Below are positions 3,315-33,593 of a DNA stretch of 39,130 nucleotides, in pieces (within the stretch, counting starts at the first letter, position 1; each line of letters starts with the position of its first letter). The notes under the pieces are model-generated. The model did no database searches and had not been told where the DNA came from. It was given only the letters and a program-made list of their open reading frames with translations. The translations under genes and the position numbers were made by a program. The DNA is from Deltaproteobacteria bacterium. GTDB taxonomy: Bacteria; Desulfobacterota; Binatia; DP-6. The DNA lies in NCBI GenBank assembly GCA_005879795.1, contig VBKJ01000137.1, positions 1 to 39,130 on the forward strand, written 5' to 3'.

Positions 3315-6095
3315 CTACTTGCGGCCGACGACGCGGATCTTGTGCCGGCGCTCGACGGGCGGCGCCTCGCTGCGCGTGAGCACGGCCGCGAGCAGCTGCC
3401 CGAGCCGCAACGCGCCCCCGGCGTGCACGGGGTCGGCGAGCGCGGCAGCGAAGGCGGCCGCGGCGTCGTCGGGGCCGGGCACGAGGATCACGCTCGGCGG
3501 CGGGTCGAGCGCGGCGAGCCGCGCCACGATCCCGTAGCCGTCGCGGCGGGGCAGGGCCAGATCCACCACCACCACCTCCGGTCGCACCACCTGGAGGAGG
3601 TCGCCAGCCTGCTTCGCGTCCCAGGCCATCGACACCGAGAGGCCCCCGCGCGCGAGCGCCTGACGGAGGCTCATGAGCGCATCCACCTCGGCGCCCGCCG
3701 TGACCACCCGCGTGCCGCGCACGGCGTAGCGCGCGAGCGTCGCCACCACCTCGTCGGGATCGATCGGGCTCCCGACCGCCTCGATCATGCCGAGCATGAG
3801 CGCGCGGTCGGCGCCGGGATCCGCCAGACAGCCCCAGAAGCGCGCCCCGTAACCCGCCGCGCGCGCCGCGGCGACCGCGCCGAGCGCACCGGGCGCGAGC
3901 AGGTTCACGACGATCCGCGCCGGCGAGAGCTCCGCGAGCTGCTCGGCCAGGTCGTCCGCCGGCGGCATCACCTCCACGTGATGCTCGTCGAGGGCCCTCT
4001 CTCTCCAGCTGTCCGCGACGTCGACCACGAGGATCGGCCGCCGTCCGGTCTCCATCTCGCGCACGCGCGGCCGCGCCGCGGCCGGCGCCGTCACCGTCAC
4101 CACCCGCACCGGCTCGCTTGCGGGCGGAAGTGGGGCCGGGGGCGGCGCCGCGGCGGGCGGGGCCTTCAGCCGATCCCCCTCTGCGCGCAGCCGCTCGAGC
4201 TCGGCCGCCTGGGCCTTCACCTCCGTGGCGCGCCGCGCGAGGCTGGCCTCGAGCTCGCCGAGCGCCGCCTGTGCCGAGCCGAGCGCGCTCGTGAGCTGCG
4301 CCCGCTCCTCCCGCTCGCGGGCGAGCGCCTCGCGCAGGTGGGCGTCGGCGCCCGAGGCCGCGGCCGCGTCGGCGGCCAGACGATCGCGCTCCGCCTCCGT
4401 CGCCGACAGCGACTCGCGCAGGCGGTCGCGCTCGGCGGCGAGCGACTCGAGGCGTGCGGCGAGCGTGGCCATGTCGGCGTCCCGCTCGCGGCCCGCGCTG
4501 GTCGTCCGCCCCGCCTCCTCGCGCAAGCGCTCCGCCTCGCGCGTCAACTCGCCCAGGCGCGCGGTGGCCGCCAGCTCGCGCGCCCGTCCCTCGCCGAGGG
4601 CGATCTCGAGCCGGTCCTGCTCGGCGCTCGCGGCCCGTCCGGCCGCCACCAGGCGCTCGATCTCCGCGTTCGCGCGCGCCGCCTCGTCCTCGAGCGCGCC
4701 CGTGATCGCGCGCGCCGAGCCGAGCGCCCCGCCCAGCATCTCGACCTCGGCCGTCGCCGCCGCCAGCGCGTCCTCCGCCCTCCGCGCACGCTCGCGCGCC
4801 TCGTGCACGGCCTCCTCGCCCTGCAACCGCTCGCGCCCGCCCGCCGTCTCGAGCTCCTCGCGCAGGCGCTGCTCGCGCGCCGCCGCCGCGCGGAGCTCGC
4901 TCGCGAGCGCCGCGTGTCCCTGCTCCCGCTCGCGGAGCTGGGCGCGGGCGCCAGCCACGGCCTCCTCGGCCTCCTCCGCCCGCGTGCGCAGGCGCTCGAC
5001 CTCGGCCGCCCGCTCCGCGGCGCGCGCCGCCGCCGTCGCCTCGTTCGCCGCGGCCGCCCGGCGCACCCCCTCGAGGTCGGCGATCGCGCTCGCCGTCGCA
5101 CGCTCGGCCGAGGCACGCGCCGCCTCGAGCGCCGCCTCGGCGCGCGCCCGCGCGGCGCGCTCGGCCGCCGCGGTCTCGAGCGCCGCGGCCAGCCGCGCCC
5201 GCTCGCGCTCGGCGCCCGCCAGCGCGGCGGCGAGCGTCTCGGCGCGCTCCGCGTCCCGCTTCGCCTGCTCGAAATCAGCGGCCAGCCGCGTCCGGTCGGC
5301 CGCGGCGAGCTCGAGGGCCGCGCGCAGGCGATCGGTATCACCGCTGCGCGCCGCGAGCTCGGCGGCGAGCACGGCGCGCTCGGCGCTCCGCGCCGCCACC
5401 TCGCCGCGCAGCTGCTCGCGGTCGGCCACGAGCGCCGTCACCTCGGCAGCCGGCTTGGGGACCGGAGCGGCGACCGGCGCCCGCGGCGCGCCGACCGGCT
5501 CGACGCCGCCCCGGCGCCGCACCGCCTCGATCATCGCCGCCAGCTCGCCGAGCGGGCGCTCGAGCGTGCGCACGTCGCGCTCCGCGAACGAGCGCGGCGC
5601 GAGAGCGATCAGCACGAGGCTGCCGACCGGCGTCGGTCCGGCGTGCAGCGGGATACACGCGATGGTGCGCACCGCCGCCGCATGCTCGACCAGGCGCGGG
5701 ACGTAGCGGTTCCGCGCCACGCTCTCGATCAGGTAGGCGCGGCGGTTCAAGAGCCCGTTGAGCGGCATGTCCCACGCCGTCGGGTCGGTGCGGCGCGCGT
5801 TGCGCAGGCGGCGGCAGCCCTCCTCGGAAAGGCCGACCTCTGCGACCAGACGGAGGAGCCCCTGCCGCTGGTCGAAGAGGCAGAGGGCGCCGGCCTGCGC
5901 CCGGCTCGCCTCGAGGATGGCGCGCAGCGCGGGCTCGAGCGCATCCTCGGGCGCCGCGGCGTCGGCGGCGATCTCACGCAGCCGCTCGCGCAGCGCCTCC
6001 CCCACCGCGGGCGGCCGAGCCGCGGGCGGGGCCGACGTCTCCGGCACCGCGTTCCGCCCCCCGGGGCGGCGAGGCTTGCGGGGGAAGATCGCCAT
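3315..6095 (-). CDS. GAF domain / long coiled coil / receiver-like domain protein
   Basis: A 926-residue cytosolic protein. Residues about 40-195 resemble a GAF sensor domain (AGALCLFDQRQGLLRLVAEVGL, later IACIPLHAGPTPVGSLVLIAL). Residues about 220-660 are an uninterrupted Ala/Glu/Arg coiled coil. After a Pro-rich hinge the C-terminus holds two receiver-like folds. The first (about 705-810) lacks a recognisable phospho-acceptor. The second (about 810-905) has VVVVDLALPRRDGYG with the usual Asp, but the acidic pair at strand 1 is replaced by VVTAGAE. There is no histidine-kinase, cyclase or DNA-binding domain, so this looks like a scaffold or polarity-type signalling protein. The start ATG is preceded by AAAGG at about 7 nt. 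It diverges from the TPR gene. Confidence 0.75.
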   Translation of the reverse strand: MAIFPRKPRRPGGRNAVPETSAPPAARPPAVGEALRERLREIAADAAAPEDALEPALRAILEASRAQAGALCLFDQRQGLLRLVAEVGLSEEGCRRLRNARRTDPTAWDMPLNGLLNRRAYLIESVARNRYVPRLVEHAAAVRTIACIPLHAGPTPVGSLVLIALAPRSFAERDVRTLERPLGELAAMIEAVRRRGGVEPVGAPRAPVAAPVPKPAAEVTALVADREQLRGEVAARSAERAVLAAELAARSGDTDRLRAALELAAADRTRLAADFEQAKRDAERAETLAAALAGAERERARLAAALETAAAERAARARAEAALEAARASAERATASAIADLEGVRRAAAANEATAAARAAERAAEVERLRTRAEEAEEAVAGARAQLREREQGHAALASELRAAAAREQRLREELETAGGRERLQGEEAVHEARERARRAEDALAAATAEVEMLGGALGSARAITGALEDEAARANAEIERLVAAGRAASAEQDRLEIALGEGRARELAATARLGELTREAERLREEAGRTTSAGRERDADMATLAARLESLAAERDRLRESLSATEAERDRLAADAAAASGADAHLREALAREREERAQLTSALGSAQAALGELEASLARRATEVKAQAAELERLRAEGDRLKAPPAAAPPPAPLPPASEPVRVVTVTAPAAARPRVREMETGRRPILVVDVADSWRERALDEHHVEVMPPADDLAEQLAELSPARIVVNLLAPGALGAVAAARAAGYGARFWGCLADPGADRALMLGMIEAVGSPIDPDEVVATLARYAVRGTRVVTAGAEVDALMSLRQALARGGLSVSMAWDAKQAGDLLQVVRPEVVVVDLALPRRDGYGIVARLAALDPPPSVILVPGPDDAAAAFAAALADPVHAGGALRLGQLLAAVLTRSEAPPVERRHKIRVVGRK

Positions 6096-18421: not shown

Positions 18422-20191
18422 ATGCCCGCCGTTGCAGGAAGACCGCTCGCCGCCCTGATAGTGCTCGTCATGTTGGCGGGGCCGGCGCGGGCCACCACGT
18501 TCGTCGGCGTGAGCGAGCGCACGCTGGTCCGGGCCGCGGACGCGATCGTGATCGGCACGATCGCGCAGATCGAGACGGTCGCCGGCGCCGACGGGACGAT
18601 CAGCACGCTGGTCACGCTCGACGTCGAAGAGACCGTGAAGGGCCACGTCGAGCGGCGCCTCGCCCTCAAGGAGCCGGGTGGCCGCATCGGCGGCCGCACG
18701 CTCTGGATCGCGGGCGCACCGCGCTTCCGGACGGGCGAGCGGCAGCTCCTCTTCCTCTCCGCCGCCGCGGACGGGACGGCCCACACGACGGCCCTCGGCA
18801 TGGGGCAGTTCGTGCTGGGGCGGCACCCGCGTACCGGCGCCGCGCTCGCCGAGCGGCGCGTCGACGGCCTCGTCGTCGGCGACCGCCCGCTCCGGCGCGT
18901 GGCGCTCGCGCGCCTGCGGCGCACGCTCGCGCGCGCCGTCGCGCAGGGGGGCGGCGCTGCCGCTCCGCTCCTCGCCACCCCGCCCGAGCTCCTCGACCCC
19001 GGCCGCGAGCGCGCTCCGGTCGCCGAGTTCACCCTCTTGGAGGACCCCCCGGGCCGCTGGTTCGAGGCGGACAGCGGCCAGCCGGTCGTCTACCAGACCG
19101 CCGGCCACGACGCCGCCCTGGGCGAGGGCGCCTCGCTCGCGGCCATCGACGCCGCGCTCGCCGCGTGGACGAACGTGAGCGGCGCGAGCATCGTCCTCGA
19201 GCGCCAGGGGACGACCGTGCCCGCGCCGCTCAGCTGCGACGGGATCTCGCAGATCGTCTTCGCCGATCCCTTCCGCGAGATGCCGGACCCGGTCGCGTGC
19301 AGCGGCGTGCTCGCGCTCGGCGGCTACTGCACGTCCGCGGATACGGACGCGGTCGACGGCAAGACCTTCTATCGCATCACCGAAGGCAACATCACCTTCA
19401 ACCGGGGCTTCGCCGGCTGCCCCTTCTGGAACGCGACCAACCTGGCCGAGGTCGCAACCCACGAGCTCGGCCACACGATCGGCATCGGCCACAGCTCCGA
19501 GAGCGACGTCGCGCCGCCGGTGCTGAAGGACGCCACCATGTACTACCGGGCGCACTTCGACGGACGCGGCGCCTCGGTGCACGCCGACGACATCGCGGCG
19601 GTGCGCTTCATCTACCCCGGTCCGGGCGGCGGCGACCCGAGGGTCGAGGACATCGACGGCGACGGCCTCCCCGACGCCGAGGACGACTGCCCCGCGATTC
19701 CGAACCCGGCGCAGACCGACACCGACGGCGACGGCCTGGGTGACCTCTGCGATCCGTGCCCGCTCGCGCCCGGCGGCGAGGGAGCCTGCCAGCCGATGTA
19801 CGTGGGCCGGCTGCGCATGACGCTCGCCGGCCCGCGGAGCCGGCTCGTGTGGCGCGGCTCGCTCGATCTGCCCGACGGCACGCCGCCGTCCGCCGCCCGG
19901 GTGCTCCTGGTCGACGCGCGCGGCGTCGTGGTGGACACTGCGACCGGGAGCCCGCTCGCGCGTGCGGGCTCCCCCCGCCGACGCCTCCGCTACCGGAGCG
20001 GTCGCGCTCTGATCACGCTCCGTCCCCGCCGCGGGGGCCGCTACCGGGTCCGGGTCGCGGTGCGCGGCCTCGACCTCGGCGCGGACGGCATGTCGCTCCT
20101 GAGCGCGAGCCTCCAGGTCGGCTCCCAGAACTTCGCCGACTCGCTCAGCTGCGAGCGCCCCCGCCACCGCCACGTCACCTGCCGCGACTGA
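18422..20191 (+). CDS. Secreted matrixin-type metalloprotease with thrombospondin type 3 repeats
   Basis: 589 residues. Signal peptide 1-24 (PLAALIVLVMLAGPARA). The zinc motif HELGHTIGIGHS at 347-358 is HExxHxxGxxH with catalytic Glu348, and ATMYY at 371-375 supplies the Met-turn Met373, both as in matrixins (peptidase M10). Upstream, ASLAAIDAALAAWTNVSGASI is the usual pre-catalytic helix. Residues 409-447 form two calcium-binding Asp-rich repeats (DIDGDGLPDAEDDCP, TDTDGDGLGDLCDPCP) of the thrombospondin type 3 kind. A basic beta-rich tail follows. It probably cleaves extracellular protein. No obvious cysteine-switch pro-peptide is visible. The start ATG has weak upstream signals. A structured 123-nt element follows the stop by 30 nt. 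Confidence 0.88.
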   Translation: MPAVAGRPLAALIVLVMLAGPARATTFVGVSERTLVRAADAIVIGTIAQIETVAGADGTISTLVTLDVEETVKGHVERRLALKEPGGRIGGRTLWIAGAPRFRTGERQLLFLSAAADGTAHTTALGMGQFVLGRHPRTGAALAERRVDGLVVGDRPLRRVALARLRRTLARAVAQGGGAAAPLLATPPELLDPGRERAPVAEFTLLEDPPGRWFEADSGQPVVYQTAGHDAALGEGASLAAIDAALAAWTNVSGASIVLERQGTTVPAPLSCDGISQIVFADPFREMPDPVACSGVLALGGYCTSADTDAVDGKTFYRITEGNITFNRGFAGCPFWNATNLAEVATHELGHTIGIGHSSESDVAPPVLKDATMYYRAHFDGRGASVHADDIAAVRFIYPGPGGGDPRVEDIDGDGLPDAEDDCPAIPNPAQTDTDGDGLGDLCDPCPLAPGGEGACQPMYVGRLRMTLAGPRSRLVWRGSLDLPDGTPPSAARVLLVDARGVVVDTATGSPLARAGSPRRRLRYRSGRALITLRPRRGGRYRVRVAVRGLDLGADGMSLLSASLQVGSQNFADSLSCERPRHRHVTCRD

Positions 20192-20220: not shown

Positions 20221-20343
20221 CGCGGCGGCGGGGGGCGGCGTCGGCGGCGACCTTCGAGGGCGCCGCGCGCGGCGCTCGCGGCAGGGCTGGCGACGGCCGC
20301 CGGCGCCCGAGCGGGAGCGCCGATGCCGCCCCCCGCCGCCGCG
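20221..20343 (+). repeat. Structured 3'-end element, copy B
   Basis: A 24-bp stem (20221-20244 with 20320-20343; all pairs Watson-Crick except one G-U) encloses a 75-nt loop with a second 8-bp stem (GGGCGCCG 20258-20265 with CGGCGCCC 20301-20308). The loop begins with GCGACCTTCGA and ends with GAGCGGGAGCG. The minus strand at 32287-32166 has the same two loop-edge sequences but a different, equally paired stem. Both copies lie in the same orientation just after a stop codon. Probable 3'-UTR element, terminator or structured RNA. Confidence 0.6.
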
Positions 20344-20387: not shown

Positions 20388-20774
20388 ATGAACCCGGCGG
20401 TGCGCGTTCGTGGCCTCCGCCACCTGGCGCTCCGGGTGCGCGACGTGCGCGCCGCGGCGCGCTTCTACACGGAGACCTTCGGCATGCGCGTCGTGTGGGA
20501 GCCCGACGGCGAGAACGCCTACCTGAGCACGGGGAGCGACAACCTGGCGCTGCATCAGGACCCGCACGCGGCGCCGGGAGGCGCGCTCGACCACCTGGGC
20601 TTCCTCGTGGCGACGGCGGACGAGGTCCACGCGGCGGCCGAGCAGCTGCGGGCGCGTGGCGTGCCCGTCGCGCACCCGCCCGCCGTCCACCGCGACGGCT
20701 CGGTCTCGTGCTACTGCCGCGATCCGGACGGCAACCTGATCCAGGTCCTCTACCTGCCCGGGATCGAGGCGTGA
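20388..20774 (+). CDS. VOC (glyoxalase/bleomycin-resistance) family protein
   Basis: 128 residues, one vicinal-oxygen-chelate domain made of two beta-alpha-beta3 halves: LRHLALRVRDVRAAARFYTETFGMRV at the N-terminus and ALDHLGFLVATADEV starting the second half. Likely metal ligands are His12 and His69. The usual C-terminal Glu in 'DPDGN.IE' is Gln here (DPDGNLIQVLYLP), so metal binding or activity may differ from glyoxalase I. The substrate is unknown. The stop overlaps the start of the phosphatidylcholine synthase gene as GTGA. ATG 20388 is fixed by the promoter spacing. Confidence 0.85.
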   Translation: MNPAVRVRGLRHLALRVRDVRAAARFYTETFGMRVVWEPDGENAYLSTGSDNLALHQDPHAAPGGALDHLGFLVATADEVHAAAEQLRARGVPVAHPPAVHRDGSVSCYCRDPDGNLIQVLYLPGIEA

Positions 20775-25588: not shown

Positions 25589-27484
25589 TCAGTTGAGCTG
25601 CGCCTGGACCTTGAGCTGCAGGATGTCGTGCCCCCGGAACGTGGCCAATCCGGCCCGCCGCGAGCCTTCGATGGCGACGTAGCTGGCGGCCAGGAGGACG
25701 TTGTCGGTCAGGCGGTAGACCACCGACGGCGCGAAGCCGAAGATGCCGCTCACATCGAGGATGGCCACGACGCGCGGCTCGAGCCTGCCGTGCAGGTAGT
25801 CGGTCTGGAGCGCGATCTGCATGAACTGGTTGTCGAACTTGTACTGGTCCTCGAAGCCCTTCGTGTTGGCCTTCTGGCAGGTGATGAAGAACTTGCCGTT
25901 GGGTCCGGGCTTGTCGCAGTCGGGGGTGCCCGGGATGCGTCCGAGCACGGTCGCCGGCTTCCCCGGCTTCTGCTCGCCCAGGTAGCGGAAGTCCATTCCG
26001 CGCCGCTCGAGGAGGTTCCACTGCCCGTGCCAGGCGGTCACCAGGACGAAGGAGTTCGTCGGGTTGAGGGGGCGGAAGAAGAAGAAGGTGTCGTAGCCGA
26101 TCACCCAGCGCAGGTAGTCGGTCTTCGGGATCGTGTTGACGATCGGGCTCCCGTCGGGGTTCCTCGCGGTCGGCACCTGCCCGCGGGGGTTCAGGTTCTT
26201 CTCCGGGATGAAGGCGAGCTCGTCGATGAAGGCCTCCGCCTCGGTGCGGATCACGCCGCGCACCGTCGGTGAGAACCAGCTCGCGGAGACGCCCGCGACC
26301 GACTCCAGGCGCCGCTCGAGGATGGTGACCAGCGCGAGGGCCTTCGAGCACGGCCGCCCGGACGGCGTGAACCCCGCCTTGCTGCACACCGGCACGCGGA
26401 AGCCCCGATCGTCGATCTGGATCGGGACGATGCCGTTCGGGTTGCTCGCGCTCCGCGTGTTGTTCAGGCCGCCCGGGGTCGACAGCAGGGGGACGGGCGC
26501 CTGATTGAAGGTCCGGTAGAACCACCCCTGGAGCGTGTACTCCCGGAGGAGGAGGCTCTGCAGCCTCACCCCCCAGCGGGTGTTCGCCCAGCTCATGGCG
26601 GGCTGATGGCTCACGAGGTCCAGGTGCAGCAGCTTCCCGATCGCCGGCCCGCCGAGGGCGGTCACCTGGTTCTGCGGATCCGGGACGTCCGGGTTGAAGG
26701 GGCTCACCCCGGCCGTGATCGGATCGGTCGGCACGGTGGTGTCGACGACGCCCGGAATGACGTACGTGTCCAGGAAGCCGCTCGAGAGCGAGCCCCAGTC
26801 GTCGAACATCTTCACGGTGTTGCGGAGCGCCCAGGCCGGGATGCGGGCCTCCTCGAGATCCTGGATGAGGCCAGGGACGCCGAGGGTCAGGTCGAAGAGG
26901 TTGGTCACGTCGAGCAGCGCGATGTCGTCCGACTCGCCCCACGAGATCGCCTGCCGCCCCACGCGCGTGAACAGCCGGCCCTTGGTGTAGTCGAGGTAGA
27001 GCTCGTTGATCCGGTTGCGGCTCGCGTAGATGTGGCGCGGGTTCTTGTTCTGGTCGTTGAAGACGAAGGAGTCCTTGTTCACCTTGTCGGTCTCTGCGAA
27101 GCGCGCCTTGTACGCCTTGCGCGCGTCGTTCCACTCGGGGTCGAGGTAGTCGTAGAGCCCGTCGTAGAAGCCCCACCACGCGAAGCGGAACTTGAACTCA
27201 TCGGGGGAGAGGAGCGAGAGACCCGGAACGTTGTCCGTCCAGTGCATGTAGTCGGTGAGCCGCGCGTCGAACTCGGGGTTGTAGAAGTTCCGGTGCTGCG
27301 CCAGGTCGCCGATCTTGTAGCGCGTCGGCTGGTCCTTCTCGGCGTCGTCCATCATGATGCCGAGCTGGGAGTAGACGCGCGCCCGGAGGTCGAAGTTGCG
27401 GTTGCCTCCCAGAAAGTAAGACTGCGCCGACGATCCGACCCCGAGGACGAGGCCGAGCACCAGCCAACCTGTCCAGGTCCGCAT
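25589..27484 (-). CDS. DUF1302-like outer-membrane protein, copy 1
   Basis: 631 residues. Signal peptide about 1-22 (MRTWTGWLVLGLVLGVGSSAQS). The mature protein is beta-rich and aromatic, with GRLFTRVGRQAISWGESDDIALLDVTNLFDLTLGVPG, the pattern expected of DUF1302-type barrels that are often linked to uptake or handling of hydrophobic compounds. It is close to full-length identical in layout to the protein at 27801-29702, with most residues unchanged. It ends in QLKVQAQLN rather than a terminal Phe. Two conserved Cys pairs (VPVCSKAGFTPSGRPCSK and DCDKPG...TCQ) could form disulfides. It was probably made by tandem duplication. No DUF1329 partner gene is seen. Confidence 0.7.
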   Translation of the reverse strand: MRTWTGWLVLGLVLGVGSSAQSYFLGGNRNFDLRARVYSQLGIMMDDAEKDQPTRYKIGDLAQHRNFYNPEFDARLTDYMHWTDNVPGLSLLSPDEFKFRFAWWGFYDGLYDYLDPEWNDARKAYKARFAETDKVNKDSFVFNDQNKNPRHIYASRNRINELYLDYTKGRLFTRVGRQAISWGESDDIALLDVTNLFDLTLGVPGLIQDLEEARIPAWALRNTVKMFDDWGSLSSGFLDTYVIPGVVDTTVPTDPITAGVSPFNPDVPDPQNQVTALGGPAIGKLLHLDLVSHQPAMSWANTRWGVRLQSLLLREYTLQGWFYRTFNQAPVPLLSTPGGLNNTRSASNPNGIVPIQIDDRGFRVPVCSKAGFTPSGRPCSKALALVTILERRLESVAGVSASWFSPTVRGVIRTEAEAFIDELAFIPEKNLNPRGQVPTARNPDGSPIVNTIPKTDYLRWVIGYDTFFFFRPLNPTNSFVLVTAWHGQWNLLERRGMDFRYLGEQKPGKPATVLGRIPGTPDCDKPGPNGKFFITCQKANTKGFEDQYKFDNQFMQIALQTDYLHGRLEPRVVAILDVSGIFGFAPSVVYRLTDNVLLAASYVAIEGSRRAGLATFRGHDILQLKVQAQLN

Positions 27485-27800: not shown

Positions 27801-29702
27801 TCAGTTGAGCTGCGCCGTGACTCTCAGCTGCAGGATGTCGTGGCCACGGAACGCGCCGAATCCCGCCCGCCGCGAGCTCTCGATGGCGACGTAGGTCGCG
27901 CTCAGGAGGACGTTGTCCGTCAGGCGGTAGATCACCGACGGATTGAAGGCGAACATGCCGCTCACGTCGAGGAGCGCCACGATGCGCGGCTCGAGGAGGC
28001 CGTGCATGTAGTCGGTCTGGAGCGCGACCTGCAGGAACTGGTTATCGATCGTGTAGAGGTCCTCGAAGTTCTTCGGGTTCACCGTCTGGCACGTGAGCCC
28101 GAACTTGCCGTTGGCCCCGGGCTTGTCGCAGTCCGGGGTGCCCGGGATGCGTCCGAGCACCGTCGCCGGCTTCCCCGGCTTCTGCAGGCCGGCGTAGCGG
28201 AAGTCCATCCCGCGCCGCTCGAGGATGTTCCACTGGCCGTGCCAAGCGGTCACGAGGGTGAAGGAGTTCGTCGGGTTGAGCGGGCGGAAGAAGAAGAAGC
28301 GGTCGTAGCCGATCACCCAGCGCAGGAAGTCGGTCTTCGGGATCGTGTTGATGATCGGTCTCCCGTCCGGGTTCTTCCCGAAAATCGGCACCTGCCCGCG
28401 GGGGTTCAGGTTCTTCTCCGGGATGAAGCCGAGCTCGTCGACGAAGGCCTCCGTCTCGAGGCGGATGACGCCGTCCACCCGCGGGCTGAACCAGCTCGCG
28501 GAGACGCCGGCGACCGACTCGAGGCGCCGCTCGAGGGTCACGACGGTCGCGAGGGCCTTCGAGCACGGCCGCCCGGACGGCGTGAACCCGGCCTTGCTGC
28601 ACACCGGCACGCGGAAGCCCCGGTCGTCGATCTGGACGGGGGTGATGCCGTGCGGATTGCTTGCGCTCTTCAAAATGTTGAGGCCGCCCGGCGACGAGAG
28701 CAACGGGACGGGCGCTTCGTTGAACGTCCGGTAGAACCACCCCTGCAAGGTGTAATCGCGCAGGAGCACACCTTCGAGCCGGGCTCCCCAGCGGGTGTTC
28801 GCCCACGTCATCGCCGGCTGATGGCTCACGAGGTCCAGGTGGAGCAGCTTCCCGACCGCCGGGCCGCCGACCGCGGTTATCTGGTTCTGCGGATCCTGGA
28901 CGTCCGGATTGAAGGGGCTGACGCCCGCCGTGATCGGATCGATCGGCACGGTCGTGTCGACCACGCCGGGTACGACGTAGGCGTCGGCGAAGATGCTCGA
29001 CAGCGGGCCCATCGTCTCGGCCACCTTCACCGTGTTGCGGAACGCCCACACGGGGATGCGCGCCTCGTCGAGGTCCTGCATCAGGCCCGGCACGCCGAGG
29101 GTCAGGTCGAAGAGGTTGGTCACGTCGAGGAGCGCGATGTCGTCCGACTCGCCCCACGCGATCGCCTGCCGGCCCGCCCGCATGAAGACCCGCCCCTTGC
29201 TGTAGTCGAAGTAGAGCTCGTTGATGCGGTTGCGGCTCGCGTAGATGTGGCGCGGGTTCTTGTTCTGGTCGTTGAAGACGAAGGAGTCCTTGTTGACCTT
29301 GTCGGTCTCTGCGAAGCGCGCCTTGTACGCCTTGCGCGCGTCGTTCCACTCGGGGTCGAGGTAGTCGTAGAGCCCGTCGTAGAAACCCCACCACGCGAAG
29401 CGGAACTTGAACTCCTCGGGGGAGAGCAGCGAGAGGCCCGGGACGCGATCCGTCCAGCGCATGTAGTCGGTGAGCCGCGCGTCGAACTCGGGATTGTAGA
29501 AGTTCCGGTGCTGCGCCAGGTCGCCGAAGCTGTAGCGCGTCGGCTGGTCCTTCTCGGCGTCGTCCATCATGATGCCGAGCTGCGAGTAGACACGCGCGCG
29601 GATGTCGAAGTTCCGCCCCTTGTCCAGAAAGTAAGCCTGCGCGGTCGATCCGGCCCCGAGGACGGCGAGGCCGAGCACCAGCCAACGGGACCAGGTCCGC
29701 AT
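27801..29702 (-). CDS. DUF1302-like outer-membrane protein, copy 2
   Basis: 633 residues, with a signal peptide of about 23 residues (MRTWSRWLVLGLAVLGAGSTAQA). It aligns throughout with copy 1 (25589-27484), sharing long blocks such as LTLGVPGL.QDL, WWGFYDGLYDYLDPEWNDAR and GRIPGTPDCDKPG. Differences cluster in loops: FGKNPDGRPI against TARNPDGSPI, and ILKSASNPHG against NTRSASNPNG. Such loop divergence fits two porin-like proteins with different ligands. This copy is adjacent to tetR and likely keeps the ancestral arrangement. As in copy 1, there is no C-terminal Phe. The family name rests on pattern and architecture. Confidence 0.7.
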   Translation of the reverse strand: MRTWSRWLVLGLAVLGAGSTAQAYFLDKGRNFDIRARVYSQLGIMMDDAEKDQPTRYSFGDLAQHRNFYNPEFDARLTDYMRWTDRVPGLSLLSPEEFKFRFAWWGFYDGLYDYLDPEWNDARKAYKARFAETDKVNKDSFVFNDQNKNPRHIYASRNRINELYFDYSKGRVFMRAGRQAIAWGESDDIALLDVTNLFDLTLGVPGLMQDLDEARIPVWAFRNTVKVAETMGPLSSIFADAYVVPGVVDTTVPIDPITAGVSPFNPDVQDPQNQITAVGGPAVGKLLHLDLVSHQPAMTWANTRWGARLEGVLLRDYTLQGWFYRTFNEAPVPLLSSPGGLNILKSASNPHGITPVQIDDRGFRVPVCSKAGFTPSGRPCSKALATVVTLERRLESVAGVSASWFSPRVDGVIRLETEAFVDELGFIPEKNLNPRGQVPIFGKNPDGRPIINTIPKTDFLRWVIGYDRFFFFRPLNPTNSFTLVTAWHGQWNILERRGMDFRYAGLQKPGKPATVLGRIPGTPDCDKPGANGKFGLTCQTVNPKNFEDLYTIDNQFLQVALQTDYMHGLLEPRIVALLDVSGMFAFNPSVIYRLTDNVLLSATYVAIESSRRAGFGAFRGHDILQLRVTAQLN

Positions 29703-31553: not shown

Positions 31554-32150
31554 TTGTTCACCGGCATCATCCAGGCGACCGGCCGCGTCGAGCGGCGCGG
31601 GACGAGCGGCAGCGGAGCGCGTCTCACCATCGCCACTCCGCGGCCCCTCCCGCGCCTCGCGCTCGGCGAGAGCATCGCCGTGAACGGCGCCTGCCTCACC
31701 GTCGCCGCGCGGCGCGACCGGCGCTTCACGGTCGACGTTTCGCCCGAGACGCTGCGCCGCACCACGCTCGGCCGCATGGCCCCCGGGGCGCGTGTCAACC
31801 TCGAGCGCGCGCTCCGCATGGGCGACCGCATGGGCGGCCACATCGTCCAGGGCCACGTCGACGGCGTCGGACGCCTCGAGAAGGTGACGCGCGACGGCGA
31901 CTGGCTCCTCTACCGCTTCCGCGCCCCCCGCACCCTCGTCCCCTACCTGGTCGAGAAGGGCTCGATCGCCGTCGACGGCGTGAGTCTCACGGTGTCCGCC
32001 TGCCGCGGCCCGAGCTTCACGGCGGCGCTCATCCCGCACACGCTCGAGCAGACGACGCTCGGCGAGCGCAAGCCGGGCGACCGCGTCAACCTCGAGGCCG
32101 ACGTCCTCTTGAAACAGATCGAGCGTATGCTGCGCGCCCGGAGGCCGTAG
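31554..32150 (+). CDS. ribE: Riboflavin synthase, alpha subunit
   Basis: 198 residues, two lumazine-binding repeats. It dismutates two 6,7-dimethyl-8-ribityllumazine molecules to riboflavin. The N-terminal MFTGIIQATGRVE is diagnostic. Repeat 1 has GESIAVNGACLTV and DVSPETLRRTTLG; repeat 2 has GGHIVQGHVDGVG, GSIAVDGVSLTV and LIPHTLEQTTLG. The start is TTG at 31554, immediately after the TAG of the zinc-ribbon gene (no gap), so translation depends on coupling. No other rib genes are here. Flavin supply fits the flavoprotein-rich window, but that is only context. Confidence 0.95.
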   Translation: MFTGIIQATGRVERRGTSGSGARLTIATPRPLPRLALGESIAVNGACLTVAARRDRRFTVDVSPETLRRTTLGRMAPGARVNLERALRMGDRMGGHIVQGHVDGVGRLEKVTRDGDWLLYRFRAPRTLVPYLVEKGSIAVDGVSLTVSACRGPSFTAALIPHTLEQTTLGERKPGDRVNLEADVLLKQIERMLRARRP

Positions 32151-32165: not shown

Positions 32166-32287
32166 GCGGGCGAGGGTGGGGACGCCGCCGGCGCTCCCGC
32201 TCCTCGGCCGACGGCCGGGCGAGCACGACCGGGCGGGCGTTCGGCCTCGTCGAAGGTCGCGGCGGCGGCGTCCCCACCCTCTCCCGC
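32166..32287 (-). repeat. Structured 3'-end element, copy A
   Basis: A 25-bp inverted repeat with one mismatch (32166-32190 with 32263-32287) around a 72-nt loop. Read on the minus strand it starts 7 nt after the stop codon of the ABC1 kinase gene. Its loop begins with GCGACCTTCGA and ends with GAGCGGGAGCG, the same as copy B at 20221-20343, while the stem sequence differs. It also separates convergent genes, so it may end transcription of ribE too. Confidence 0.6.
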
Positions 32288-32294
32288 TGGCGTC

Positions 32295-33593
32295 TCAGGC
32301 CTCCGGACGCGCCGCACCCGCTGCGAGGTAGGGGAGCAGGGTGGCACCGAGGTCGATGTGGGTGCCGAGCTGCTTGCCGATGCCGGAGAGCAGTCCCATG
32401 ACGCGGCCGACGAGCAGGACGTCGGAGGGGACCTCCACGAGCGGGTTGGCGCGCATGATGCGCGGCAGGTCCGCGCCGAACTGCGCGATCATCTCGGGGT
32501 CGGCGAAGGATCGCCCGTTGCGGAGCGCCCAGCCGAGGAACGCCTCGCCCAGCCAGGCGAGGCTCTCGTCGGACTGCTCGCGCGTGCGAAAGCCGAGGGC
32601 GCGGAAGGCGGCCGCGACCGCGGCCCGATCGCCGCCCACGATGGCGGCCGTCAGGCGCGCGACGCCGTCGCGGAAGGCGGGCGGAAAGTCCTTGGCCAGG
32701 CCGAAGTCGAGCAGCACGAGCCGCCCGCCGGGCTGGACCAGGATGTTCCCCGGGTGCGGGTCGGCGTGGAAGAAGCCGTGGAGCAGTATCTGCTCGCAGA
32801 AGAGGTCGATCAGGCGCCGCGCGACGTCGGCCGGGTCGAGGCCGAACGCGCGCAGGCCCACGACGTCGGTCACGCGCACGCCGAGCGCGTACTCCATCAC
32901 CAGCACGCGGCGCGTGCTGAGCTCGCGCACGATGGCGGGCACCAGGATGTCCGCCCGGCCGCTCAGGTGCGCGGCCATGCGCTCGGCGTTGTCCGCCTCG
33001 TGCACGAAGTCGAGCTCGAGCGGCACGTACTTCTCGACCTCGCGGATGAGGGCGCGGAAGTCGAAGTCGCGCTCGAGGCGCGCGAGGACGCCGATCAGCA
33101 CGGCGAAGCTCCGGAGGTCCACGCGCACAACGCGTTCGATGTCCGGGTACTGCATCTTGACCGCCACCTCCCGCCCGTCTTGCAGCCGGCCGCGATGCAC
33201 CTGCGCGAGCGAGGCCGAGGCGAGAGGCGCGGGATCGAGCTCCGCGAAGGCCGCCTCGACCGGCCGCCCGAGCTCCCGGCGGAGGAGCGGCAGGAAGGTA
33301 GCAAGCGGCCGCGGCGGCACCCGGTCCTGGAGGCGGGAGAGGACCTCCACGTATTCGGCGGGCAGGATGTCGGCGCGTGAGCCCAGGAACTGGCAGACCT
33401 TGATGGGCAGCCCCTCGAGGCGAGTCGCCAGGCGGTAGGCGGCCTCGGCGCTGCGGCGATGATGGCGGGCGAGACGCGCTCCGTCGCCGCACGCCGGGGC
33501 GACGCCGCGGCTGAGCTGGATCAGCTTGTAGCCGCCGTAGATACGCGCCACGAGGGCCGCGAGGGCGGAGAAGCGCCGCGCCGCCAGGAGCAT
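32295..33593 (-). CDS. ABC1/AarF (UbiB) family atypical kinase
   Basis: 432 residues. Kinase-like landmarks: the Ala-rich loop ASASLAQVHRG (about 126-136), Lys146 in VAVKMQYP, the HADPHPGNIL catalytic segment (about 276-285) and the metal-binding LLDFGLAKDF (about 294-303). The family-specific KxGQ motif is K65-V-C-Q68 here, with Cys in place of Gly. UbiB-type proteins support quinone and lipid metabolism through an ATPase-like activity. No clear transmembrane tail is visible at the C-terminus. ATG 33593 is chosen because a TTGCGT-N17-CACAAT promoter ends 6 nt upstream; an upstream TTG at 33641 would lie above the promoter. Confidence 0.9.
   Translation of the reverse strand: MLLAARRFSALAALVARIYGGYKLIQLSRGVAPACGDGARLARHHRRSAEAAYRLATRLEGLPIKVCQFLGSRADILPAEYVEVLSRLQDRVPPRPLATFLPLLRRELGRPVEAAFAELDPAPLASASLAQVHRGRLQDGREVAVKMQYPDIERVVRVDLRSFAVLIGVLARLERDFDFRALIREVEKYVPLELDFVHEADNAERMAAHLSGRADILVPAIVRELSTRRVLVMEYALGVRVTDVVGLRAFGLDPADVARRLIDLFCEQILLHGFFHADPHPGNILVQPGGRLVLLDFGLAKDFPPAFRDGVARLTAAIVGGDRAAVAAAFRALGFRTREQSDESLAWLGEAFLGWALRNGRSFADPEMIAQFGADLPRIMRANPLVEVPSDVLLVGRVMGLLSGIGKQLGTHIDLGATLLPYLAAGAARPEA

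What the first reader, a model, noticed from the sequence alone, without database searches (positions are those of the whole stretch)
20221..20343. Two 122-123 nt hairpin elements with conserved loop edges and different paired stems
This element and the minus strand of 32166-32287 share GCGACCTTCGA at the loop start and GAGCGGGAGCGCCG across the loop end. Their outer stems (24 and 25 bp) differ in sequence but both pair almost perfectly. Conserved unpaired sequence with covarying stems is the mark of a structured RNA or mobile 3'-end element. Both copies have the same orientation relative to the gene before them (30 nt and 7 nt after a stop).
Basis: seen in the sequence. Interest (0 to 1): 0.75.

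Follow-up and report, generated by a model that had tools for sequence, protein, structure and literature searches.

The report
Dispersed hairpin family at gene ends
The two hairpins belong to a previously unlisted family of about 120-base stem-loop elements, scattered at the ends of genes in one group of uncultured soil-type bacteria, whose inner loop never changes while the stem letters change in matching pairs, which suggests a working folded RNA with an unknown partner.

Summary
Both hairpins are where stated and fold far better than shuffles (z about -6). The window's genome holds about a dozen copies with the same core (type A, GCGACCTTCGA../..GAGCGGGAGC), and related types B, C and D share the architecture: a 20-29 bp outer stem of variable sequence, an invariant internal loop, an inner stem and a variable apical loop. 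About 45 elements were read in the genomes of one bacterial family; another family holds one more. Stem changes are compensatory (12 and 18 covarying pairs; 0 of 500 shuffles). In 35 of 43 the 3' arm lies 4-38 nt from the stop of an opposite-strand gene, mostly between convergent genes. One site is occupied in three genomes and empty in three; the window's second site is empty in five relatives, so copies come and go. Rfam has no match; the own genome has no RAYT-type transposase; no U-tract follows. Best reading: a dispersed, lineage-specific 3'-end RNA element, probably blocking read-through or antisense transcription through a protein-bound loop. That function is inferred, not shown.

The parts
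20221..20343 (+). Element 1, type A, whole hairpin
20221..20246 (+). Element 1, 5' arm of the variable outer stem (G-rich)
20247..20257 (+). Element 1, conserved internal loop, 5' side: GCGACCTTCGA
20258..20265 (+). Element 1, inner stem 5' strand GGGCGCCG
20301..20308 (+). Element 1, inner stem 3' strand CGGCGCCC
20309..20321 (+). Element 1, conserved internal loop, 3' side: GAGCGGGAGCGCC
20318..20343 (+). Element 1, 3' arm of the outer stem (C-rich; overlaps the end of the conserved box)
32166..32287 (-). Element 2, type A (inner-stem variant CGAGGCCG/CGGCCGAG), whole hairpin
32250..32260 (-). Element 2, conserved internal loop, 5' side: GCGACCTTCGA
32242..32249 (-). Element 2, inner stem 5' strand CGAGGCCG
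32203..32210 (-). Element 2, inner stem 3' strand CGGCCGAG
32190..32202 (-). Element 2, conserved internal loop, 3' side: GAGCGGGAGCGCC
18461..20191 (+). Gene ending 29 nt before element 1 (Peptidase_M10-like, thrombospondin type 3 repeat)
20388..20774 (+). Gene after element 1 (glyoxalase family); one of the few cases where the gene on the 3' side is co-directional
32295..33593 (-). Gene ending 7 nt before element 2 (ABC1 atypical kinase)
31554..32150 (+). Convergent gene, riboflavin synthase-like (Lum_binding); its stop lies 15 nt from the 3' arm of element 2

Best explanation
The two hairpins are copies of a lineage-specific family of dispersed, structured 3'-end elements that act as RNA. 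Each is a 20-29 bp outer stem, constrained mainly to pair, that presents an invariant internal loop built of short pairs, a U.C mismatch and G.A-type mismatches, capped by an inner stem and a mostly free apical loop. The hairpin, together with a protein (or another factor) that reads the internal loop, ends or blocks that transcript before it runs antisense into the 3' end of the neighbouring gene. Copies arise by occasional duplication or transposition and are kept or lost locus by locus. The protein partner and the copying machinery are unknown.
For: Copies: 10 exact core matches in the own genome; 12 strong covariance-model hits, of which 11 are type A and one type B; own-genome types B, C and D read by hand. 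Covariation: type A has 12 of 30 pairs with double changes, score 0.279 against 0.091 shuffled, 0/500, and sliding the partners destroys it. Type C has 18 of 29 pairs, 99.5% of cells paired, 0/500. No intact copy has turned the loop mismatches into a plain helix. Strand: G.T 25 against A.C 6 in the outer stems of 45 elements, p about 0.001. Position: 3' arm 4-38 nt from an opposite-strand stop in 35 of 43; in four places two elements face outwards, one next to each of two convergent genes. Site kept across genera: a B element just after the stop of the same patatin-like gene in the own genome, G002 and G005, with changed but still pairing arms. Deep core: one type-C core with its outer stem, its inner stem shrunk to a triloop, in another family (G054). 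The surveyed own-genome sequence has almost no other hairpin of this stem quality.
Against: No expression data; transcription is inferred. There is no U-tract after the stem and no conserved promoter before it, so intrinsic termination is not the textbook kind. If the tight anchor to the opposite-strand stop reflects that gene's own 3' UTR, the sense strand would be the other one, against the G.T signal. Compensatory changes in long palindromes can also arise by template-switch repair without selection; only the uncorrected internal loop and the G.T bias argue against that. The G.T count is small and closely related copies are not fully independent. Gene calls are from a simple codon-usage script.
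Confidence: 0.5

Rival explanations
1. A non-autonomous mobile DNA repeat (REP/ERIC/MITE-like) whose hairpin is recognised as single-stranded or cruciform DNA by a transposase; it accumulates between convergent genes because insertions there are harmless, and any RNA effect is secondary.
For: Copies lie at different loci in different genomes. The window's second site is empty in G001, G002, G003, G005 and G006, although the convergent gene pair is kept in all five. The patatin site is empty in G001, G003 and G004. Several G004 type-C copies share flanking sequence beyond the stem. Damaged copies exist (L192, L035).
Against: The own genome, 99.6% complete, has no Y1_Tnp/RAYT gene. Paralogous type-A right arms differ on average at about 6 of 20 positions yet still pair, not the near-identity of fresh copies, although one pair has identical right arms. 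A one-strand wobble bias is not expected of a double-stranded DNA signal. Target-site duplications were not tested.
Confidence: 0.3
2. An ordinary bidirectional transcription terminator or mRNA 3'-protecting hairpin of convergent genes in a high-GC genome, the conserved loop being a leftover of shared ancestry.
For: Position after stops and between convergent genes; very stable GC-rich stems.
Against: No U-tract. The loop is invariant while the stem varies, the reverse of a plain terminator. The randomly chosen contigs of the same genome have no such hairpin.
Confidence: 0.12
3. An independently transcribed small RNA gene present in many copies.
For: Conserved structure, and intergenic spacers of 50-300 nt upstream in tandem contexts.
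Against: No conserved promoter-like sequence at a fixed distance upstream; upstream flanks differ between most copies; no promoter match found in the window region.
Confidence: 0.06
4. Chance: GC-rich sequence that happens to fold.
For: The genome is about 71% GC.
Against: 0 matches in shuffles and reversed-pattern controls, fold z about -6, covariation.
Confidence: 0.01

Closest known systems
REP / REPIN / BIME palindromic repeats (GTAG and CGTC super-families; PMC3733652, PMC3116915, PMC8266576)
   Same: Dispersed intergenic palindromes, mostly downstream of genes and between convergent or unidirectional ORFs, often in inverted pairs; transcribed effects and mobility proposed.
   Different: REPs are 20-40 bp with 5-13 bp (GTAG) or 8-9 bp (CGTC) stems and an unpaired GTAG or CGTC tag (PMC3733652). 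These are about 120 nt with 20-29 bp variable stems and a large conserved internal loop. No RAYT gene in the own genome.
ERIC-type imperfect palindromes and other stem-loop sequence families (PMC2267715, PMC1590033)
   Same: From general knowledge ERIC is about 127 bp; an imperfect inverted repeat, intergenic, with a single long predicted stem-loop.
   Different: ERIC copies are conserved along their length (general knowledge). Here the stem letters vary with compensation and only the internal loop is fixed; several core types share one architecture.
Intrinsic (Rho-independent) terminators
   Same: GC-rich hairpin shortly after a stop codon, shared by convergent genes.
   Different: No U-tract; far longer; invariant internal loop; found at only a few dozen gene ends.
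Structured cis-regulatory RNAs (Rfam families)
   Same: Covarying helices framing conserved unpaired nucleotides.
   Different: No Rfam family matches even at E <= 1; positioned at 3' ends, not 5' leaders.

Membership tests
REP/RAYT elements | 20-40 bp unit with a short stem and an unpaired GTAG or CGTC tag at one end | tested here: not met
   About 120 nt, 20-29 bp stems, no common tag at the stem foot
REP/RAYT elements | Cognate Y1 (HUH) transposase in the genome, element flanking its gene | tested here: not met
   PF01797: 0 matches in the own genome; 1-7 in five relatives, none in G003; flanks of those genes not examined
REP/RAYT elements | Preference for 3' intergenic and convergent positions | tested here: met
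ERIC / stem-loop repeat families | Dispersed intergenic repeat with a shared long stem-loop | tested here: met
ERIC / stem-loop repeat families | Sequence homologous to ERIC or another described family | not tested
   No library of DNA repeats at hand; only Rfam searched, without match
MITE | Terminal inverted repeats shared between copies | tested here: not met
   Outer arms differ between most copies
MITE | Target-site duplication | not tested
   Empty sites found but spacers too diverged to align base by base
Intrinsic terminator | GC hairpin followed directly by a U-tract | tested here: not met
   Downstream flanks of 45 elements show no T run directly after the stem; terminator scan found none at either element
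Structured RNA family (new) | Compensatory base-pair changes above shuffled controls | tested here: met
Structured RNA family (new) | Strand asymmetry of wobble mismatches | tested here: met
   G.T 25, A.C 6
Structured RNA family (new) | Transcription and folding in the cell | not testable with these tools
   No transcriptome available
Rfam 15 families | Match to any covariance model | tested here: not met

The most novel reading that the evidence does not exclude
A new class of RNA insulator: a set of 3'-end hairpins with several interchangeable loop types (A-D), each read by a cognate RNA-binding protein, which stop antisense or read-through transcription at the ends of chosen genes in an uncultured bacterial lineage and spread by being copied between gene ends.
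Probability: 0.2. Interest if true: 0.75.

Novelty: new variant of a known kind. Interest (0 to 1): 0.5.

Why it matters
Repeated intergenic palindromes are common, but here the letters of the stem are nearly free and only an internal loop is fixed, in several alternative versions. That pattern points to a specific partner that reads the loop. It would give a concrete handle on how high-GC bacteria with few U-tract terminators protect gene ends, and on how 3'-end RNA elements spread. If it is only a mobile repeat, it is still a repeat family whose copies stay foldable on one strand, which needs explaining.

Tried and rejected
Coding origin of the core (it reads ATFEGAERG in one frame): rejected, because the matched cores differ in length by one or two bases (71-75 nt) and differences follow pairing. 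Mobile unit inserted into pre-existing perfect palindromes: rejected, because the surveyed own sequence (about 655 kb) holds hardly any empty long hairpin. RAYT/REP: no Y1 transposase in the own genome. Independent sRNA gene: no conserved promoter. Hits of the core pattern in Pseudomonas and a Clostridia MAG: chance, no stem arms. Viral contigs: no match. The EttA locus was uninformative because the neighbour gene differs in relatives. Rfam: nothing.

Full report
WHAT WAS CLAIMED AND WHETHER IT IS THERE. Element 1 (20221-20343, +) and element 2 (32166-32287, -) are exactly as described. They fold with z = -6.1 and -6.5 against dinucleotide shuffles. The joint pattern GCGACCTTCGA..GAGCGGGAGCGCC is not expected in the window by chance.

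MORE COPIES. The window is contig C137 of a 4.1 Mb genome in 280 contigs. The exact pattern occurs ten times in it, with none for the reversed control, and in none of 57 relatives. A covariance model built on the ten finds 12 strong copies in the own genome (11 of type A, one of type B) plus weaker ones. Reading the hits one by one shows that several belong to sister types with the same plan but another core. Type A is GCGACCTTCGA/GAGCGGGAGC. Type B is GCGATCTCTCG/GAGCGTGAGC. Type C is GCGCCTATGA/GAATCGAAGCGGAG. A hairpin survey adds type D, GCGACCTCC[AG]CAGGCCCGC/GAGGACGCGGGA. A type-C model over 148 genomes of the class finds copies only in this family (own 3, G001 2, G003 4, G004 21, G006 1) and one in another family, G054. 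In G054 the core and outer stem are kept but the inner stem is reduced to a triloop, so the unit that lasts is core plus outer stem.

ANATOMY. From outside in, type A has a 20-29 bp outer stem (G-rich 5' arm, C-rich 3' arm), a C.C mismatch in most copies, 3 bp, a GA/A loop, CCU/GGG, a U.C mismatch, one C-G pair, tandem GA/GA, an inner stem of about 8 bp and a variable apical loop. In element 2 and its sister on C205 a second GA/GA replaces two inner-stem pairs. Type C has GGA/GGA, GC/GC, GC/AA, C-G, U.C, AU/AU, GA/GA and then the inner stem. Type B keeps the U.C mismatch.

SELECTION ON PAIRING. Type A: 12 of 30 pairs change on both sides and still pair; covariation 0.279 against 0.091 in shuffles (0 of 500), lost when partners are slid. 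Type C: 18 of 29 pairs, 99.5% of cells paired, 0 of 500. Long palindromes can correct themselves by template switching, which also makes paired changes. But that process would equally heal the internal-loop mismatches, and no intact copy shows that.

WHERE THEY SIT. With genes called by a simple codon-usage script, 35 of 43 elements have their 3' arm 4-38 nt from the stop codon of a gene on the opposite strand; 12 of 45 have the 5' arm within 40 nt of a same-strand stop (counted by hand, leaving out two false pattern hits). Most lie between convergent genes. In four places two elements face outward, one beside each convergent gene (G002 C462, G005 C140, G004 C49 and C73). Neighbouring genes are ordinary (kinase, riboflavin synthase, ABC-F, FKBP and so on). 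No U-tract or conserved promoter adjoins them.

HISTORY. A type-B element lies just after the stop of the same patatin-like gene in the own genome (contig C199), G002 and G005, with arms that differ and still pair. The site is empty in G001, G003 and G004. The kinase/riboflavin-synthase pair around element 2 is intact but without the element in G001, G002, G003, G005 and G006. So copies are stable for a while and are gained or lost by locus. Several G004 type-C copies share flanking sequence, and truncated copies exist (L192, L035). Dispersal is real. The usual mobiliser of palindromic repeats, a Y1/RAYT transposase, is absent from the own genome.

ORGANISM. The Binatota paper reports that Binatota sequences are classified as unclassified Deltaproteobacteria by one scheme (PMC8262859). 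That this family is Binatota is my guess and was not tested.

MECHANISM. Shown: the sequence facts above. The main rival is a mobile DNA hairpin that lives in harmless 3' spacers. The two are not exclusive, as REP repeats show.

KNOWN OR NEW. Rfam has no match. The nearest kinds are REP/REPIN/BIME and ERIC-like stem-loop families (PMC3733652, PMC3116915, PMC2267715), which share position and dispersal but not size, tag, transposase link or the fixed-loop/free-stem pattern. I rate it a new variant of a known kind.

Noticed in passing
L066:2876-3059 and L077:15482-15683 (own genome C131 and C199): A separate pair of about 190 bp palindromic, MITE-like elements with terminal repeats CTAGGAGTCCGTCCGGGTAATCATGG; the interior of one is largely the reverse complement of the other.
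   Followed up: partly
window 25589-27460 and 27801-29702: Two neighbouring minus-strand genes contain an identical 25-base stretch (27019-27043 and 29234-29258), so they look like tandem paralogues.
   Followed up: no
L071 around 4692-4762: A type-C element lies between two tandem paralogous genes (70% identical proteins), as if the spacer had received the element after or during the duplication.
   Followed up: no
G000 C199:1-344 and C210:802-2106: The own genome carries two patatin-like genes related to the G002 gene (79% and 76% identical); one may be a contaminant contig (assembly contamination 3.9%).
   Followed up: no
G002:C460 after the ABC1 kinase gene (L197): At the site where the own genome has element 2, G002 has different inverted repeats around CGACCCGAGA..TCTCGGGTCG, perhaps another repeat family at gene ends.
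   Followed up: no
G002, G005, G006: Five to seven Y1_Tnp (RAYT-like) matches per genome in genus g3, none in the window's genome; their flanks were not examined for palindromes.
   Followed up: no
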